Part shown: piece after piece, positions 3,377 to 37,020 of the stretch | Position numbering within the stretch: position 1 is the stretch's first letter | How the letters are laid out: every line of letters begins with the position of its first letter | Virus record (IMG/VR): IMGVR_UViG_3300021964_000098 | Span: 1 to 52,320 of that record | Source: a virus | Strand: one strand, 5' to 3' | Length of the DNA stretch: 52,320 nucleotides | Program-made: the position numbers and the translations under genes | Notes under the pieces: generated by a model | Database searches by the model: none | What the model was told of the DNA's origin: nothing | Seen by the model: the letters and a program-made list of their open reading frames with translations, nothing else

Positions 3377-3589
3377 TTGGTTCATGTCTTTATCCTTATA
3401 GTACTCATAGGAGGCGAGGAAGCGTCTAGCACTTGTGATCAAGCAATGTGTTTCTATGACGTAAACAGATGTAATTACTTTGCAAGCAAGTTGAGATGGA
3501 GAGGATCTCCAAGTACATCTAGCCCCATCTCAGCTTACTGCAAGCCAATCTTGGTTGATTCAAGTCAAGAAGGCGTGAGGATCTACTAG
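3377..3589 (+). CDS. Small Cys-containing protein with N-terminal hydrophobic segment
   Basis: 70 residues from a TTG start immediately after the fibre stop codon. Residues 2-12 (VHVFILIVLIG) form a short hydrophobic stretch that could be a membrane anchor or signal. The remainder is polar with four cysteines (CDQAMC, RCNYF, AYCKP). The pattern of Cys, Tyr/Phe and a terminal AYCxP is reminiscent of small hypothetical proteins of other marine podoviruses, but I cannot name a family. Its stop overlaps the next start by one base, which supports translation as part of the late operon. Function unknown. Confidence 0.6.
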   Translation: MVHVFILIVLIGGEEASSTCDQAMCFYDVNRCNYFASKLRWRGSPSTSSPISAYCKPILVDSSQEGVRIY

Positions 3590-4056
3590 TGGCAGCAGAA
3601 ATCATAGCAGCCGTTTCAGCGGCTAATCAAGCTTTTAATTTTATTAAGAAAGCTGTACATAAAGGAAGAGAATTACAAGATCTAACCAATGCTATAGGTG
3701 CTTTTTGGGATGCTCGTGAAGAGGTTAGTGTCCTTGAACAGAAAGCAACAAATCCTAGCAAAATGCAAAAGATATTTGGTGGTAAGTCTGTAGAAGCCCA
3801 AGCATTAGAAGTGACATTGCAGAAACAACGTGCAGAAAATTTAGAGCGAGAATTAAAAGATATATTTTTATGGACAGGGAATGGTCATCTTTGGACTGAA
3901 ATGATACGCGAAAGGTCACGTATAAGAAACACTAGAATTGCAGCAGCTAAACAAGCCGCTCAAACAAAAGCAGCAATGATAGACTTAGCAATTATTGGTG
4001 GAACTGTAATTGGTATATTTATAATTGCAATGGGAGCTACCTCCATTATACTATAA
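3589..4056 (+). CDS. Membrane-anchored helical protein
   Basis: 155 residues, GTG start overlapping the upstream stop by one base. Mostly alpha-helical and charged: residues ~20-115 include heptad-like stretches, and an Ala-rich N-terminus (EIIAAVSAANQAFNFIKKA) is amphipathic. A single C-terminal membrane segment lies at about residues 130-153 (IDLAIIGGTVIGIFIIAMG), so the protein is probably tail-anchored in the inner membrane. It precedes two more membrane-protein genes in the fibre-to-internal-protein gap, a usual place for podovirus lysis genes. A lysis role (pinholin or spanin-like) is a guess from position; no diagnostic motif was seen. Confidence 0.65.
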   Translation: MAAEIIAAVSAANQAFNFIKKAVHKGRELQDLTNAIGAFWDAREEVSVLEQKATNPSKMQKIFGGKSVEAQALEVTLQKQRAENLERELKDIFLWTGNGHLWTEMIRERSRIRNTRIAAAKQAAQTKAAMIDLAIIGGTVIGIFIIAMGATSIIL

Positions 4057-17150: not shown

Positions 17151-17321
17151 GTGCACCGTTTAATTCTGATTGCTCTTTTACTTTCTTCCTGCTCAACAGC
17201 AACCTACGACTTCCCAATAGAGTTTCCTAATAGGATGCCTCAGGGATTGTTTGACAACAACCTCAGAGATTGTAGGTCACAGCCTCAATGCTCTGCGGAT
17301 CAACTATTTGATAGGTGGTAA
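17151..17321 (+). CDS. Small predicted lipoprotein
   Basis: 56 residues from GTG 17151, two bases after the giant virion gene, ending one base before the ATG of the monooxygenase gene. Residues 1-13 form a lipoprotein signal (HRLILIALLLSS) followed by Cys14, giving the lipobox LSSC and a predicted lipid-anchored 43-residue product with two further cysteines (DCRSQPQCSADQLFDRW). Ser at +2 predicts outer-membrane sorting in enterobacterial rules. Short outer-membrane lipoproteins near lysozyme genes are often o-spanins, but no matching i-spanin was seen. It could instead act with the secreted oxidase that follows. The tight spacing on both sides supports a real gene. Confidence 0.65.
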   Translation: MHRLILIALLLSSCSTATYDFPIEFPNRMPQGLFDNNLRDCRSQPQCSADQLFDRW

Positions 17322-17322
17322 T

Positions 17323-18624
17323 ATGAGAAAAACTTTGTTAGCTGCTTGTATAGGACTAGCTACAGCGGCTCAAGCCGATGATACATATGTTGATACTGTA
17401 GCAAGTATTATAAATAACAACTGTGTTGTTTGTCACAGAGAGGGCGGTATAGGCCCTATGTCTTTTGAGACTTATGAGCAGGTCAGACCTTGGTCACCTC
17501 TTATCTCATACAAAGTAGCTAACAGAGAAATGCCTCCTTATGCCTATGATCAACACATAGGAATTCAGAACCTTGAAGGGGATTGGAGACTATCACAGGA
17601 TCAGATAGATTCTGTTGTTAATTGGGCAAACTCTGGATCGCCTTATGGTGATTCTGACATAGTTGTCCAGCCTCCAAACCTCCCAAGTCTAGACTCTTGG
17701 AACTTTGAGCCTGAGTTTGGTGCGCCAGATCTTATTATTCCTTCTTCACCCTACGACATCCCTGCCAATGGTAATGACCTATGGAGCAAGGAGTTCGTAG
17801 ATCCTCAACTGGCTGAGTCACGCTGCATCAAAGCCGTACAGGTTAAGCCAAGAGGCGATGCAGCCGCTGTAGTACATCACGCTAATTCAGATGTATATGT
17901 ATATGACGATGAAGGTGAGCTTCAACAGTATGGTCAGTTGACTGAGTATGCTATGGGTAAGTGGGGAGAGCTTATGCCAAAGGGCGTATGCCGTACCTTT
18001 CCTGCTAACTCTTTAGTGCGTTGGGATATCCACATGTTCCCCGGCGGCGTAGGAGCTACAGCAGAAGGAGATATGATTGAAGATAATGTTGTAGAGATTG
18101 GTCTTTGGTTTCATGAAGAAGACTATGAAGCTAACAACGATGTCTATCAACAAGACCTAAGGCTATATCCTCTGCGCGAAGGCTATGAGAATGGCCATCT
18201 AATTATCCCTCCTAATGGCTATGCTATGACGCAGGGGTTTCACAGCTTTGATCACCCTGTGCGCATTGATAGTTTCCAACCCCACGGACACCTCCGTATG
18301 AATGCTGCGTCACTAGAGATATTTAATCCTATGACAGGACGCACCAAGTCAGTAAGTCAGATTTCTAACTGGAGTGCCACATGGCATCACAGCCATATCT
18401 ACGACCCCTTAGAGGCCCCTGTGTTGGCTGCTGGAGAGGTTCTAGTAATCAAGCAGTGGTATGATAATACCTCTGACAATCCCAACAACCCTGACCCAGA
18501 TCAGTGGGTGTATGGCGGCAGCAGGACGGGAGATGAAATGTCTCACGCTTGGATTGCTGTTACTCATCTAGACGATCAAGGTTACCAACAAATAATGGAA
18601 GAAAGATTTAATGGGGCTGATTGA
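17323..18624 (+). CDS. Secreted cytochrome c - copper type II (PHM-like) monooxygenase fusion
   Basis: 433 residues from ATG 17323; in-frame starts upstream fall inside the lipoprotein gene. Sec signal MRKTLLAACIGLATAAQA (1-18). A small cytochrome c domain follows: heme motif C34-V-V-C37-H38 and REMPPYAYDQ with Met70 as probable axial ligand. Residues ~130-420 match the two-copper fold of peptidylglycine alpha-hydroxylating monooxygenase: HH pair H185-H186 and H237 (WDIHMFPGG) for CuH; H321-x-H323 (PHGHLRM) and M406 in a DEM motif (GDEMSHAW) for CuM. All expected ligands are present, so it looks active. Known relatives are copper hydroxylases acting outside the cytoplasm; the heme domain may feed electrons to the coppers (inference). 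Substrate unknown. It overlaps the lysozyme gene by 14 bases, so it is expressed late. Probably an auxiliary host-derived gene. Confidence 0.85.
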   Translation: MRKTLLAACIGLATAAQADDTYVDTVASIINNNCVVCHREGGIGPMSFETYEQVRPWSPLISYKVANREMPPYAYDQHIGIQNLEGDWRLSQDQIDSVVNWANSGSPYGDSDIVVQPPNLPSLDSWNFEPEFGAPDLIIPSSPYDIPANGNDLWSKEFVDPQLAESRCIKAVQVKPRGDAAAVVHHANSDVYVYDDEGELQQYGQLTEYAMGKWGELMPKGVCRTFPANSLVRWDIHMFPGGVGATAEGDMIEDNVVEIGLWFHEEDYEANNDVYQQDLRLYPLREGYENGHLIIPPNGYAMTQGFHSFDHPVRIDSFQPHGHLRMNAASLEIFNPMTGRTKSVSQISNWSATWHHSHIYDPLEAPVLAAGEVLVIKQWYDNTSDNPNNPDPDQWVYGGSRTGDEMSHAWIAVTHLDDQGYQQIMEERFNGAD

Positions 18625-22486: not shown

Positions 22487-22753
22487 CTAATGATCCTTTA
22501 AATGATCTAGGTAAGGTTCCTCTTTTACCTTACATCCAGTTTTTTCTATGTACTTAATAAGTCTATCTTCGTACCATCGTGCTTTATATAAATCCTCTAT
22601 GCCATTCTTGTATCGGAAACGCCACCTGTACTTCAGGCTGTTACCGCGCAAGTATCCTATAACCTCTTCGGATGTAAGCATGCTCTCAATGGCTTCAATA
22701 CATTCCACGCCTCCTTTGTTATAGTGAGGCGGGTTGTTTACGTTGTCAGTCAT
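22487..22753 (-). CDS. DUF3310 protein (T7 gp1.7-related)
   Basis: 88 residues with the full DUF3310 signature: VNNPPHYNKGGVECIEAIES, EEVIGYLRGNSLKYRWRFRYKNG and EDLYKARWYEDRLI. The family includes T7 gp1.7, reported as a nucleotide kinase, but many members are short like this one and their activity is untested. The first codon overlaps the endonuclease I stop (ATGA), and the next gene, nrdA, follows one base after. The setting next to ribonucleotide reductase fits a nucleotide-metabolism role. Confidence 0.88.
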   Translation of the reverse strand: MTDNVNNPPHYNKGGVECIEAIESMLTSEEVIGYLRGNSLKYRWRFRYKNGIEDLYKARWYEDRLIKYIEKTGCKVKEEPYLDHLKDH

Positions 22754-23262
22754 TCTTGCTCCTTGTCTATATCAAAGTATTCTTCTTTGAATCTCTCGCT
22801 TTCTCTGTATTCTTTATCTACCCAATCATCAGGAATACTTTCTTCGCTATACCACTTGAAGCCATTAGCTCCGGCCCACTCACCATGACTTCTCTTGGTT
22901 CCATCCTTACGGCGTTTGGCCTGAGGCATTGGTGAATTAGGATCAGCAAAAAGAAACACTAGCTCCACGTTAGGAGGTAGCATCTTCTTTATCCAAATGT
23001 ACTTACTGTATTCTGAATAATCCCAGAAACGGCCTTTAGATTCAATGAGATAAGTTTTTCTTCCTATCTTTTTGCTAAAGTCTGGGTGATAGACATGATT
23101 AACTACATAAGGAATCTTTCTGTCATGATGCTTCCACCCCTTCAAGAGGCCATGATGAAGATTGTATTCCCATATAGAGTCATAGTTGGTAGGTACATTC
23201 TTCTCTACAGGACGCTGTACTCTACGTTTTCTATAACCCTTCCTGACTTTTGATTTTTTCAA
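22750..23262 (-). CDS. Endonuclease I, T7-type Holliday-junction resolvase
   Basis: 170 residues (T7 gp3 has 149). A basic N-terminus precedes the PD-(D/E)XK core: Glu in YDSIWEYNLHHG, Asp in VYHPDF, and Glu-x-Lys in TYLIESKGRF, matching T7 E20, D55, E65 and K67. Expected to resolve branched DNA before packaging and to help degrade host DNA. The extra C-terminal ~40 residues (acidic) are outside the usual core. TTG start overlapping the stop of the upstream small gene (TTGA); the next ATG would remove the basic N-terminal region. Confidence 0.9.
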   Translation of the reverse strand: MKKSKVRKGYRKRRVQRPVEKNVPTNYDSIWEYNLHHGLLKGWKHHDRKIPYVVNHVYHPDFSKKIGRKTYLIESKGRFWDYSEYSKYIWIKKMLPPNVELVFLFADPNSPMPQAKRRKDGTKRSHGEWAGANGFKWYSEESIPDDWVDKEYRESERFKEEYFDIDKEQE

Positions 23263-33193: not shown

Positions 33194-33234
33194 GTTTTAT
33201 AAAGGTCTTTCACTACGTAAAGACCTTTTAAAAC
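33194..33234 (-). promoter_or_regulatory. Conserved-loop hairpin D upstream of the 33179 gene
   Basis: Plus-strand layout: GTTTTA, one-base bulge, AAAGGTCTTT, loop CACTACGT(A), AAAGACCTTT, TAAAAC. One of four hairpins with the same architecture and loop but different stems (others at 34516, 34783 and 35631). It ends 14 bases before the start codon at 33179 and overlaps the stop of the upstream gene. No T-run typical of a terminator follows on the minus strand. Confidence 0.75.
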
Positions 33235-34515: not shown

Positions 34516-34559
34516 AGATTTATGAAGGTCTTTCACAACGTAAAAGACCTTCTAAATCT
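34516..34559 (-). promoter_or_regulatory. Conserved-loop hairpin C upstream of the 34501 gene
   Basis: Plus-strand layout: AGATTTA, bulged T, GAAGGTCTTT, loop CACAACGTA, AAAGACCTTC, TAAATCT. Seven plus ten paired bases. The G-C closing pair of the inner stem differs from copy D (A-T) but remains paired: a compensated change. It ends 14 bases before the start codon at 34501. Confidence 0.78.
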
Positions 34560-34782: not shown

Positions 34783-34827
34783 AGATTTACAAAGACCTTT
34801 CACTTTCGTAAAAGGTCTTTTAAATCT
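34783..34827 (-). promoter_or_regulatory. Conserved-loop hairpin B upstream of the 34755 gene
   Basis: Plus-strand layout: AGATTTA, bulged C, AAAGACCTTT, loop CACTTTCGTA, AAAGGTCTTT, TAAATCT. The inner stem is swapped left for right relative to copies C and D (AAAGACC on the left instead of AAAGGTC), yet pairing is fully kept. On the minus strand the loop reads TAC-GAAA-GTG, giving a GAAA tetraloop closed by C-G. Confidence 0.78.
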
Positions 34828-35069: not shown

Positions 35070-35576
35070 TTAGCCAAGCTTCAGCTGAGTTACAAGCTGA
35101 TCAAGTGTAGACTTGATAAGATTTACATCCTCTGACATCTGAGACACCTCACCTTCAAGGAAGGTCATACGTGTCTCTAACTCTGTTGGCTTGGAAGCTG
35201 CTTTAGCAGCGACCTTGGGTGTTGCCTTTTTGGCGACCTTCTTCTTGGCAACCTTGGTTGCTGTGGGCTTGGCAGTCTTCTTGACTGCTTTGACCTTGAC
35301 CGGAGCTTTAGCTCCAACCATGTCCTCAGTCTTGACCTGACGAGTCAGGAAAGCCGGGATCTTAGCTGTCTCGAAAAGCTCTTGAGCTTTCCCACGGCTA
35401 AGAGATGAAGCCGGAAACTGGGAGTATAAAACTCCCAAGACTCGCTTCCGAATGATTGGGAACTTGATCTCTGGAATCTCTTGAGATTCACAAAGGAGGT
35501 AAGCAAACTTACCTGCTAGGCCAAAGTACTGCTTAGGAGTTGCTTGAATTTCATTCAAAGTTTGTGAAGTTGTCAT
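35070..35576 (-). CDS. Early basic protein with histone H1-like Lys/Ala/Pro region
   Basis: 168 residues. Residues ~1-85: a globular, probably helical domain (YFGLAGKFAYLLCESQEIPE; FPASSLSRGKAQELFETAKI). Residues ~90-130: Lys/Ala/Val/Pro/Thr-rich tract (KAVKKTAKPTATKVAKKKVA, then KKATPKVAAKAAS), like histone H1 tails and bacterial H1-like proteins. Residues ~132-168: an acidic coiled-coil segment (LETRMTFLEGEVSQMSEDVN). So it likely binds DNA with the tail and oligomerises through the coil. Second gene from the early promoter; framed by hairpin A upstream and a strong hairpin downstream, suggesting high early expression. Possible host-chromosome or genome-packing factor. Confidence 0.7.
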   Translation of the reverse strand: MTTSQTLNEIQATPKQYFGLAGKFAYLLCESQEIPEIKFPIIRKRVLGVLYSQFPASSLSRGKAQELFETAKIPAFLTRQVKTEDMVGAKAPVKVKAVKKTAKPTATKVAKKKVAKKATPKVAAKAASKPTELETRMTFLEGEVSQMSEDVNLIKSTLDQLVTQLKLG

Positions 35577-35630
35577 GGTAAATCTCCGATTTAAGTTTGT
35601 GTTGTGTTGTCGTTTGTGGTGCTAAGAAGC

Positions 35631-35667
35631 TTTTAAGTCTCTCTCACTACGTAAGAGAGACTAAAAA
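35631..35667 (-). promoter_or_regulatory. Conserved-loop hairpin A upstream of the H1-like gene
   Basis: Plus-strand layout: TTTT, mismatch A-A, AGTCTCTCT, loop CACTACGTA (35645-35653), AGAGAGACT, A, AAAA. The loop equals that of hairpin D although the stem sequence is entirely different. It ends 55 bases before the start at 35576. Confidence 0.75.
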
Positions 35668-35686
35668 GTTCTAAGGGTTTGGCGGT

Positions 35687-35875
35687 CTATAAATTCTGCG
35701 TGTCAATGCCTCTGGCATCGTTCCCGAGAATTTCCATGATCGCGTTGAACTTTGGATGTTCCGGATCTATCTTGATAGATACCGAGGGCTTTCGGTCCAA
35801 CATTTCTTCGAGGGTTATCAATCCACAGTTGTAAAGCTCTAGGCTATCTTCGATAGAAAATTCAACTTTAATCAT
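35687..35875 (-). CDS. First gene of the leftward (early) unit, small acidic protein
   Basis: 62 residues: MIKVEFSIEDSLELYNCGLI, then TLEEMLDRKPSVSIKIDPEH and a C-terminal helix. Good ribosome-binding site (AAAGGAG, nine bases before ATG). It is the first gene after the ~670-base leader of the leftward promoter. No family recognised. Early phage position suggests host takeover or regulation; nothing in the sequence defines it. Confidence 0.6.
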   Translation of the reverse strand: MIKVEFSIEDSLELYNCGLITLEEMLDRKPSVSIKIDPEHPKFNAIMEILGNDARGIDTQNL

Positions 35876-35940
35876 CGTATGTACTCCTTTGGAGTTGTGT
35901 GTGAGTTTTTGGTTTGTCTCGTTGTCGCTGAGACATTTCC

Positions 35941-35970
35941 ATTAAAGGCATATCGGATTTTTGGAGTCAA
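35941..35970 (-). promoter_or_regulatory. Candidate secondary leftward promoter
   Basis: Minus strand TTGACT (35965-35970), 18 bases, TTTAAT (35941-35946). Five of six and four of six matches to the sigma70 boxes. It would start transcription ~60 bases before the first early gene, downstream of the palindrome array. Much weaker than the main promoter. Confidence 0.35.
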
Positions 35971-36033
35971 GAGGTTTCTGGTGGGTGATTTTGGTGCGCA
36001 TTATGCGTAGGAAAACAGGCGAAGAAACCCTGC

Positions 36034-36074
36034 ATCACGTAGGCGTGTCATGATCACGTAGCGCGATCACGTTG
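36034..36074 (+). repeat. Three direct ATCACGTAG-type repeats
   Basis: ATCACGTAG at 36034-36042 and 36053-36061, and ATCACGTTG at 36066-36074; start-to-start spacings 19 and 13. The core resembles the CACTACGTA loop of the four hairpins. Possible iterons or protein-binding sites in the control region. Confidence 0.6.
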
Positions 36075-36098
36075 ATATTTTTAAACTTCGGGGATAGT

Positions 36099-36334
36099 AT
36101 ATTTAGTTTACTAAATATTCTATAGGTTGTTGAATTTTATAGACTCTTGAGTCTTTAAAATTTATTCAGAAGACTTACAAAATCTCTTGAGATTTTGTAA
36201 ACTAGGGAGAGCTTGAAGTTTCGGGGGCAGAATCTTTAAAGAACTTTAAAGATTCTGGAGTTTCTGGAGGGCTTTAGAGTCTAACAAGTTAGACACTAAA
36301 GATTTCTTAGCCCTCTAAAGTTCTTTAGAGGGCT
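36099..36334. repeat. Array of six tandem palindromes with dinucleotide centres
   Basis: Six inverted repeats in 236 bases, each with a two-base TT or AA centre: 36099-36118 (9-base arms, TT), 36133-36162 (14-base arms with one mismatch, TT), 36175-36200 (12, TT), 36228-36257 (14, AA), 36272-36301 (14 with one mismatch, AA), 36309-36334 (12, TT). Arms differ between units but the architecture is kept. In the leftward transcript they would make consecutive hairpins in the leader; as DNA they are strong dyads. Confidence 0.85.
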
Positions 36335-36555
36335 GGGCAGGAGGCCATGCCACCCCCCCTAGTATATATACTAATACTCATACATTTCACAGGCTTGAGA
36401 GTGTTAACTAGTTTAGGGCGATAGGAACTTCAGAGTCTTGGAGGGTTTTTGCGGCCATAGAGACTTTAAAGTCTTTAAAGGGGATATACTCAATCCGATA
36501 GGATTGTTGTTGTCTCTATAAATATATATATATGAACCCGGGGGGTACAAAGTAT

Positions 36556-36584
36556 ATTATACACTCCACAGAGCATTTTGTCAA
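36556..36584 (-). promoter_or_regulatory. Leftward sigma70 promoter, perfect consensus
   Basis: On the minus strand TTGACA (36579-36584), 17-base spacer, TATAAT (36556-36561). Both hexamers are exact. Transcription would begin near 36549 and read through the palindrome region into the early genes (first start codon at 35875). AT-rich sequence upstream of the -35 box could act as an UP element. Confidence 0.85.
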
Positions 36585-36611: not shown

Positions 36612-36640
36612 TTGACAGAACCTCTATTTAGGACTATAAT
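36612..36640 (+). promoter_or_regulatory. Rightward sigma70 promoter, perfect consensus, for the late unit
   Basis: TTGACA (36612-36617), 17-base spacer, TATAAT (36635-36640). The expected start (~36647) is one to two bases before the terS ATG at 36649, so the transcript would be leaderless or nearly so. Its -35 box is 27 AT-rich bases from that of the leftward promoter. Confidence 0.88.
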
Positions 36641-36648
36641 AGTATAAG

Positions 36649-37020
36649 ATGAGTAAAGAATTAACATTAAAGCAAAAAGATTTCTTGGACTATCTGGTTG
36701 AAACTGGAGGTGATCCTAAGAAAGCTGCTGAGTTGGCAGGATATGCCCAGAATGGACATTGGCAGGTAGTCAAGGCTCTCAAACATGAAATCATAGATCT
36801 GGCCTCTAACATTCTAGCTCAGTCAGCACCCCAAGCAGCAATGAAGCTTGTGGAGGTTATGCACTCTGATCAGCCTATTCCACAGGCTAATATGCGTCTT
36901 CAGGCTGCACAAACCATCCTAGACCGCACAGGACTAGGAAAACAAGAAAGACTAGACGTAAATAATAATATGACAGGTGGTTTATTTATACTACCGGCCA
37001 AAGCTAATGAGGCGAACTAG
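36649..37020 (+). CDS. Terminase small subunit (probable)
   Basis: 123 residues. N-terminal helix-turn-helix-like part (KELTLKQKDFLDYLVETGGD, PKKAAELAGYAQNGHWQVVK) as in phage small terminases that recognise pac/cos DNA, a helical middle (SAPQAAMKLVEVMHSDQPIP), then LQAAQTILDRTGLGKQERLD and a short tail. Directly followed by a small gene and TerL. No ribosome-binding site precedes the ATG and the promoter -10 box ends eight bases upstream, implying leaderless translation. Confidence 0.82.
   Translation: MSKELTLKQKDFLDYLVETGGDPKKAAELAGYAQNGHWQVVKALKHEIIDLASNILAQSAPQAAMKLVEVMHSDQPIPQANMRLQAAQTILDRTGLGKQERLDVNNNMTGGLFILPAKANEAN

What the first reader, a model, noticed from the sequence alone, without database searches (positions are those of the whole stretch)
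36099..36334. Tandem array of six palindromes with dinucleotide centres and unrelated arms
Six inverted repeats in 236 bases have arms of 9-14 bases, four of them perfect and two with a single mismatch at equal distance from the centre (36133-36162 and 36272-36301). All have a two-base TT or AA centre. Arm sequences differ, so what is kept is the ability to pair, not a sequence recognised by one protein. Centre distances are 35-55 bases. In the leftward leader they would form consecutive hairpins; in DNA they could form cruciforms or an origin. This looks like an undescribed structured leader or origin element.
Basis: seen in the sequence. Interest (0 to 1): 0.82.

Follow-up and report, generated by a model that had tools for sequence, protein, structure and literature searches.

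The report
Conserved phage array of DNA palindromes
Just before the first early genes of a marine phage lies a row of about six short mirror-image DNA stretches that recurs at the same spot in dozens of related phages; the sequence changes but the mirror symmetry stays, most simply because the DNA copying machinery keeps copying one half onto the other, and what the row does is not yet known.

Summary
Six palindromes with two-base TT/AA centres lie at 36094-36334; 1000 shuffles gave none. They sit in the predicted 674-nt leader of the leftward early operon of an HMO-2011-type podovirus, downstream of a perfect sigma-70 promoter that diverges from the terS promoter. In IMG/VR relatives the array recurs at the same place: 98 distinct regions, most often six palindromes.

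Pairing is kept while sequence changes, but the arms share a word, CTYYRRAG, enriched about 30-fold over coding DNA. The symmetry looks DNA-level: wobble mismatches show no leftward-RNA signature, spacers are not tuned to keep the RNA hairpins intact, paired positions in close relatives change together, and centres invert between near-identical palindromes. Concerted arm change plus spacer inversion is the published footprint of polymerase template switching.

Best reading: a hairpin-prone DNA array in a conserved control region, kept symmetrical by template switching. Its job (replication or packaging initiation, leader RNA, or none) is unresolved. I found no earlier description; named SAR11 isolates lack it.

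The parts
36094..36123 (.). palindrome 1 (centre TT; perfect core 36099-36118)
36133..36162 (.). palindrome 2 (centre TT; one T.T mismatch in the window, paired in L012)
36175..36200 (.). palindrome 3 (centre TT; replaced by a palindrome of different sequence between the same flanks in L010, L011 and L015)
36228..36257 (.). palindrome 4 (two CTTTAAAG words around AA; centre AA in L017 and the window, TT in L008 and L005)
36272..36301 (.). palindrome 5 (centre AA; TT in L005)
36309..36334 (.). palindrome 6 (two CTYTARAG words around TT; AA in L005), abuts the conserved core
36336..36390 (.). rigidly spaced conserved core GGCAGGAGGCC - about 16 bp C-rich - TATATATACTAA - ATACATTT; present in all loci used (it was the search anchor)
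36464..36480 (.). pair of CTTTAAAG words, centres 9 bp apart; an equivalent word pair stands here in many relatives
36556..36584 (-). leftward early promoter TTGACA-17-TATAAT, 12 of 12; 12/12 in 37 and 11/12 in 12 of 53 relative clusters
36612..36640 (+). rightward terS promoter TTGACA-17-TATAAT, 12 of 12; 12/12 in 41 of 53 clusters
35876..36549 (-). predicted leftward leader RNA (start inferred from the promoter, not mapped)
35687..35875 (-). first leftward ORF, 62 aa, no known family
35070..35576 (-). second leftward ORF, 168 aa with a Lys/Ala-rich stretch; in the L074-L078 clade palindromes continue into its homologue
36649..37020 (+). terminase small subunit (weak PHROG and Pfam matches)

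Best explanation
The array is hairpin-prone DNA in the early control region of a clade of HMO-2011-type podoviruses. During phage DNA replication the two arms of each palindrome can fold on each other, and the polymerase sometimes switches template between them. This copies a change from one arm to the other and sometimes inverts the centre, so each palindrome evolves as a unit and stays symmetrical. SHOWN here: position, number, chance level, joint arm change, centre inversion, absence of a strand-specific wobble signature. INFERRED: that template switching is the cause, and that the array persists because hairpin or cruciform DNA next to the conserved core helps to start or regulate replication (or packaging) at the divergence point of the genome. 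The functional half is much less certain than the maintenance half.
For: Both alignments have no one-sided paired changes: 9 two-sided change cells on 80 pairs (A3) and 5 on 81 pairs (A4), covariation score above 500/500 and 499/500 shuffles, slid structures near zero. In a wider set, 40 two-sided Watson-Crick changes against 15 two-sided non-pairing ones. Centre inversions between homologous palindromes with matching arms and flanks: TT/AA (L008/L017; L045/L148), TAG/CTA (L077/L076), TTC/GAA, AAA/TTT, TCTT/AAGA, 6 of 13 differences. Published template-switch footprints are arm homogenisation, several compensatory changes at once and spacer inversion, the last seen only with arms over 9 bp (PMC8604942; PMC8794818). 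One-sided states are strand-neutral: 54 G.T against 45 A.C. Control-region setting: divergent near-perfect promoters, rigid core with an AT-rich tract, cumulative GC-skew minimum near 35.0-35.3 kb. Replication genes of T7-like type: PolA, primase-helicase, Gp2.5-like SSB.
Against: No experiment or polymorphism within one population was available, so joint changes could also be two separate, selected steps. The wider comparison does contain many one-sided mismatches (175 against 40 two-sided Watson-Crick changes), so homogenisation is not immediate. The flip rate is modest against the AT-biased chance level for two-base centres (0.44). The skew minimum coincides roughly with the change of gene direction. 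SAR11 isolates HTVC115P, HTVC104P and HTVC103P lack the array, so any function is not essential to the whole group.
Confidence: 0.42

Rival explanations
1. Leader RNA: the leftward early transcript folds into about six consecutive hairpins that protect the mRNA, block Rho or recruit an antitermination factor; selection keeps the RNA stems.
For: The array lies wholly inside the predicted leader of a conserved 12/12 promoter. The leftward RNA folds into all six hairpins, z = -9.0, whole leader z = -10.4. Plus-strand G>C skew in the array in 52 of 53 clusters makes the leftward RNA G-poor between the hairpins.
Against: G-U pairs of the leftward RNA would show as A.C on the + strand; these are never in excess over G.T (54 G.T / 45 A.C; G.T >= A.C). 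Native spacers keep fewer hairpins intact than shuffled spacers (151 against 168 of 188), and leftward is no better than rightward (151 against 148). Neither close alignment shows one-sided wobble changes. No Rfam match.
Confidence: 0.22
2. Sequence-specific nucleoprotein site: a phage protein (early regulator, or TerS at a pac site) binds CTYYRRAG boxes lying side by side about one helical turn apart; palindromes are paired boxes.
For: CTYYRRAG at 19 per kb in palindromes, 6 per kb in the rest of the control region, 0.6 per kb in coding DNA; consecutive boxes most often 9-10 bp apart (51 cases); off-centre boxes in 23% of palindromes against 0.2% with shuffled arms. Loci without strong palindromes can still carry paired boxes (L023, L035, L060, L066). 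terS is adjacent; large relative contigs break at different places, as expected of permuted genomes.
Against: Palindromes 1 and 3 lack the box. Arms outside boxes differ freely between palindromes yet remain symmetrical, which a fixed half-site does not explain. Centre-to-centre palindrome distances (modes 24, 35-36, 38-40, 50-52, 58) are not multiples of a helical turn. Asymmetric template switching could itself spread self-complementary words. No candidate binding domain was recognised in the first early ORFs.
Confidence: 0.2
3. Mutational by-product: a strongly transcribed non-coding leader is a template-switch hot spot; palindromes build up there without function.
For: Same footprints as the best explanation. 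Quasi-palindrome mutations in yeast were seen only under high transcription (PMC3820800). Palindromes sit beyond the strongest predicted promoter, not in coding DNA, and in one clade run on into a low-complexity stretch of the second early gene. Palindrome-free relatives exist.
Against: The count (most often six), spacing and abutment on the core recur in many divergent clusters, and the leader nearer to the promoter is much poorer in palindromes than the array further downstream.
Confidence: 0.16

Closest known systems
Short inverted repeats homogenised by polymerase template switching (yeast coding IRs, rRNA and microRNA hairpins; PMC8604942, PMC8794818)
   Same: arms change together; spacer inverts while arms stay the same; arms over 9 bp, spacers 2-5 bp
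   Different: here a dense array of about six at one place of a phage genome, recurring in dozens of relatives, with a shared word family
Minute inversions at hairpins of chloroplast intergenic DNA (known from general literature; search)
   Same: centre of a hairpin flips in orientation between close relatives
   Different: chloroplast hairpins are mostly single terminators, not arrays
Bacteriophage T7 origin and hairpin ends of T7 concatemers (own knowledge, not tested)
   Same: PolA / primase-helicase / Gp2.5-type replication; structured non-coding DNA next to promoters
   Different: no terminal repeats seen; array sits at a divergent promoter region; no T7-type RNA polymerase found
lambda/HK022 antitermination leaders (put, nut) (own knowledge)
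   Same: hairpins in the leader of an early operon
   Different: two hairpins of conserved sequence there; about six hairpins of varying sequence here, without RNA-level signature
Operator arrays of ribbon-helix-helix repressors such as MetJ boxes (own knowledge)
   Same: adjacent 8-bp self-complementary boxes about one turn apart
   Different: boxes here are degenerate and absent from two of the six palindromes; no such regulator identified

Membership tests
Template-switched inverted repeats | arms change together rather than one at a time | tested here: met
   A3: 9 two-sided cells, 0 one-sided wobble cells; A4: 5 and 0. One-sided mismatches do occur in the wider set.
Template-switched inverted repeats | inversion of the spacer with unchanged arms | tested here: met
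   6 of 13 flank-matched centre differences are exact inversions.
Template-switched inverted repeats | change arises in one mutational event | not testable with these tools
   needs read-level or pedigree data
Functional leader RNA hairpins | G-U pairs of the transcribed strand tolerated more than the mirror mismatches | tested here: not met
   54 G.T against 45 A.C one-sided changes; same or opposite trend.
Functional leader RNA hairpins | spacers leave the hairpins free to form | tested here: not met
   151 intact native against 168 of 188 with shuffled spacers.
Functional leader RNA hairpins | lies in a transcribed leader | tested here: inconclusive
   a conserved promoter predicts it; no transcript data
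Intrinsic terminators | GC-rich stem followed by a run of T | tested here: not met
   none of the six was called in a terminator scan of the region.
CRISPR array | near-identical direct repeats | tested here: not met
   the six palindromes differ in sequence.
N4-type hairpin promoters of a virion RNA polymerase | very large virion RNA polymerase encoded | tested here: inconclusive
   largest ORF is 1849 aa and matches endolysin/virion proteins; no dedicated RNA polymerase search was run.
Phage replication origin | replication starts here | not testable with these tools
   GC-skew minimum near 35.0-35.3 kb is suggestive only.
pac / TerS binding site | packaging starts here or TerS binds | not testable with these tools
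   adjacent to terS only
HMO-2011-type phages (host virus) | TerL, PolA and primase-helicase related to the group | tested here: met
   best named TerL matches are HTVC115P, 104P, 103P, 033P, CRP phages and HMO-2011; PolA and primase-helicase.
HMO-2011-type phages (host virus) | DNAP with partial DnaJ central domain | not tested
   named in PMC9038755

The most novel reading that the evidence does not exclude
A family-wide cis element in which a row of about six DNA hairpins, defined by symmetry and not by sequence, marks the start of replication or packaging at the divergent control region of abundant marine podoviruses, and is kept in repair by the phage polymerase's own template switching.
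Probability: 0.22. Interest if true: 0.8.

Novelty: new variant of a known kind. Interest (0 to 1): 0.58.

Why it matters
HMO-2011-type phages are reported as dominant and widespread in the ocean, but the library papers I checked say nothing about their control regions. A symmetrical array that recurs in dozens of genomes gives a concrete target for finding their origin, early leader or packaging site. It also warns that compensatory changes in stems are not by themselves proof of a functional RNA: here they come with spacer inversions and without a strand signature. As a natural multi-copy record of arm homogenisation it could help to test how template switching shapes viral DNA.

Tried and rejected
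Near-identity search in named phages: none; sensitive search of the control region: only short chance-like hits. Strict core pattern absent from HTVC115P, HTVC104P, HTVC033P and HMO-2011 and from GTDB genomes, so no host assignment. Rfam: no match. Six palindromes as terminators: rejected. Promoters inside the array: none conserved; only a few clusters have one, notably the array-poor L028, L030 and L032. Internal control with intergenic CAC..GT hairpins for the wobble test: internal mismatches too few to be informative. A first wobble scan that penalised wobble lightly gave a + strand G.T excess; it shrank with stricter scoring and clustering and I do not rely on it. Helical phasing of whole palindromes: not seen. 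T7 endonuclease I identity of the 22750-23262 protein: PHROG says endonuclease but Pfam and PDB sequence searches give nothing useful. Literature searches for phage palindrome arrays, tandem leader hairpins and phage cruciform origins found no match.

Full report
WHAT IS THERE. The window is a 52,320-base virus record. Its TerL is closest to Pelagibacter phages HTVC115P, HTVC104P and HTVC103P (65-68% identity) and then to HTVC033P, the CRP roseophages and HMO-2011, so it is an HMO-2011-type podovirus with PolA, a primase-helicase and a Gp2.5-like protein. Early genes run leftward from about 35.9 kb, packaging and structural genes run rightward from 36.6 kb. Between them are two perfect sigma-70 promoters in divergence, TTGACA-17-TATAAT on the - strand at 36584-36556 and on the + strand at 36612-36640. 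The six palindromes lie 215-455 bases downstream of the leftward start predicted from that promoter, inside a predicted 674-nt leader.

CHECK OF THE OBSERVATION. Coordinates, arm lengths, mismatches and TT/AA centres are as reported. One thousand dinucleotide shuffles of 36000-36500 gave no palindrome of that strength against six observed. Across the 750-bp control regions of 59 relatives plus the window there are 182 against 2.8 expected, and a hundredfold less in downstream coding DNA.

RELATIVES. TerL-guided retrieval gave 80 loci. Scans with a conserved neighbouring motif gave more, 172 in all with the core and 98 distinct upstream regions. The number of palindromes per region is most often six (31 regions), 5-9 in most, 0-1 in 22. 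Next to the array is a rigid core, GGCAGGNGNCC, about 16 bases, TATATATACTMA, ATACATTTT. The divergent promoters are near perfect in most of the 53 sequence clusters (leftward 12/12 in 37, rightward 12/12 in 41). The SAR11 isolate HTVC115P keeps parts of the neighbourhood but has no palindromes; HTVC104P and HTVC103P have none of this kind either.

ARMS ARE NOT UNRELATED. The 8-base self-complementary word CTYYRRAG occurs at 19 per kb in palindromes, 6 per kb in the rest of the control region and 0.59 per kb in coding DNA. Neighbouring words are mostly 9-10 bases apart. An off-centre word is found in 23% of palindromes against 0.2% when arms are shuffled. Some loci without strong palindromes still have paired words. 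Palindromes 1 and 3 do not contain it.

PAIRING IS KEPT, BUT HOW? On the alignment of seven close relatives (A3, 80 pairs) 96.5% of cells pair. Nine cells change on both sides, none changes on one side to another standard pair, the covariation score exceeds all 500 shuffles and the slid controls are near zero. A second clade (A4, 81 pairs) gives five two-sided cells and no one-sided ones. A wider comparison that requires palindromy in only one of the two sequences gives 40 two-sided Watson-Crick changes, 15 two-sided non-pairing ones, and one-sided changes of 54 G.T, 45 A.C and 76 other. So symmetry is really maintained, but one-sided mismatches exist and are strand-neutral. If leftward RNA pairing were the selected property, A.C on the + strand (= G-U in the RNA) should be tolerated over G.T; it is not. 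Nor are spacers tuned: native spacers leave 151 of 188 hairpins intact in the minimum-energy fold of the leftward RNA, shuffled spacers 168, and the two strands do not differ. The one RNA-friendly sign is a plus-strand G>C skew in 52 of 53 clusters, which makes the leftward RNA G-poor; it can also be a replication skew.

CENTRES INVERT. Between homologous palindromes with matching inner arms and flanks, 6 of 13 centre differences are exact inversions: TT/AA twice, TAG/CTA, TTC/GAA, AAA/TTT, TCTT/AAGA. The chance rate for random pairs from the same pool is 0.44, 0.13 and 0.10 for centres of two, three and four bases, so the three- and four-base cases carry the weight. Arm homogenisation with spacer inversion is the described result of polymerase template switching between inverted repeats (PMC8604942), which can also make and repair hairpins in one step (PMC8794818). 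Such mutations are tied to strong transcription in yeast (PMC3820800).

MECHANISM. I therefore read the array as hairpin-prone DNA whose symmetry is maintained at the DNA level by template switching. Whether it is also used is the open point. In favour of use: the same place, similar number, abutment on a rigid core, recurrence in dozens of divergent clusters. Candidate uses are replication start (skew minimum near 35.0-35.3 kb; AT-rich tract in the core), packaging start (next to terS), a word-binding protein, or leader RNA. Against necessity: relatives without palindromes.

NOVELTY. I found no description of it in Rfam, in the HMO-2011-type genome paper or in literature searches. The mutational process is known; a conserved phage array of this kind is, as far as these sources go, new. 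I call it a new variant of a known kind.

Noticed in passing
window 33201-33228, 34524-34552, 34791-34820, 35630-35668: Hairpins between leftward genes share an apex CAC..(A)CGTAA while stems differ; the same kind occurs in many relatives. They may be terminators or processing sites.
   Followed up: partly
L077 about 3560-4000 (second leftward gene homologue): Several palindromes lie inside the coding sequence of a Lys/Ser-rich early protein in the L074-L078 clade.
   Followed up: partly
window 36345-36362 and relatives: The tract between the two halves of the core is C-rich in 41 clusters, G-rich in 3 and mixed in 9 (e.g. GGGGTACCCC), as if it also inverts; the G-rich form could make a G-quadruplex.
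   Followed up: no
L035 downstream of the core: Six tandem 11-bp units CTCCAAAGggt where other loci have one word pair: local expansion of the CTYYRRAG word.
   Followed up: no
window 36541-36549: The predicted 5' end of the leftward RNA matches a small hairpin (GAACCC..GGGTTC in relatives) with apparent paired changes; possible 5' protection.
   Followed up: no
window 17251-18624: 457-aa ORF with a signal-like N-terminus and a haem-binding-type CVVCH motif; weak sub-threshold match to cytochrome c (PF13442, E=0.005). Possible auxiliary metabolic gene.
   Followed up: partly
window 36410, 36197 and relatives: GTWAACTAG recurs (after palindrome 3, in the core flank, and inverted in palindrome 1); it resembles a trp-operator half but no regulator was found.
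   Followed up: no
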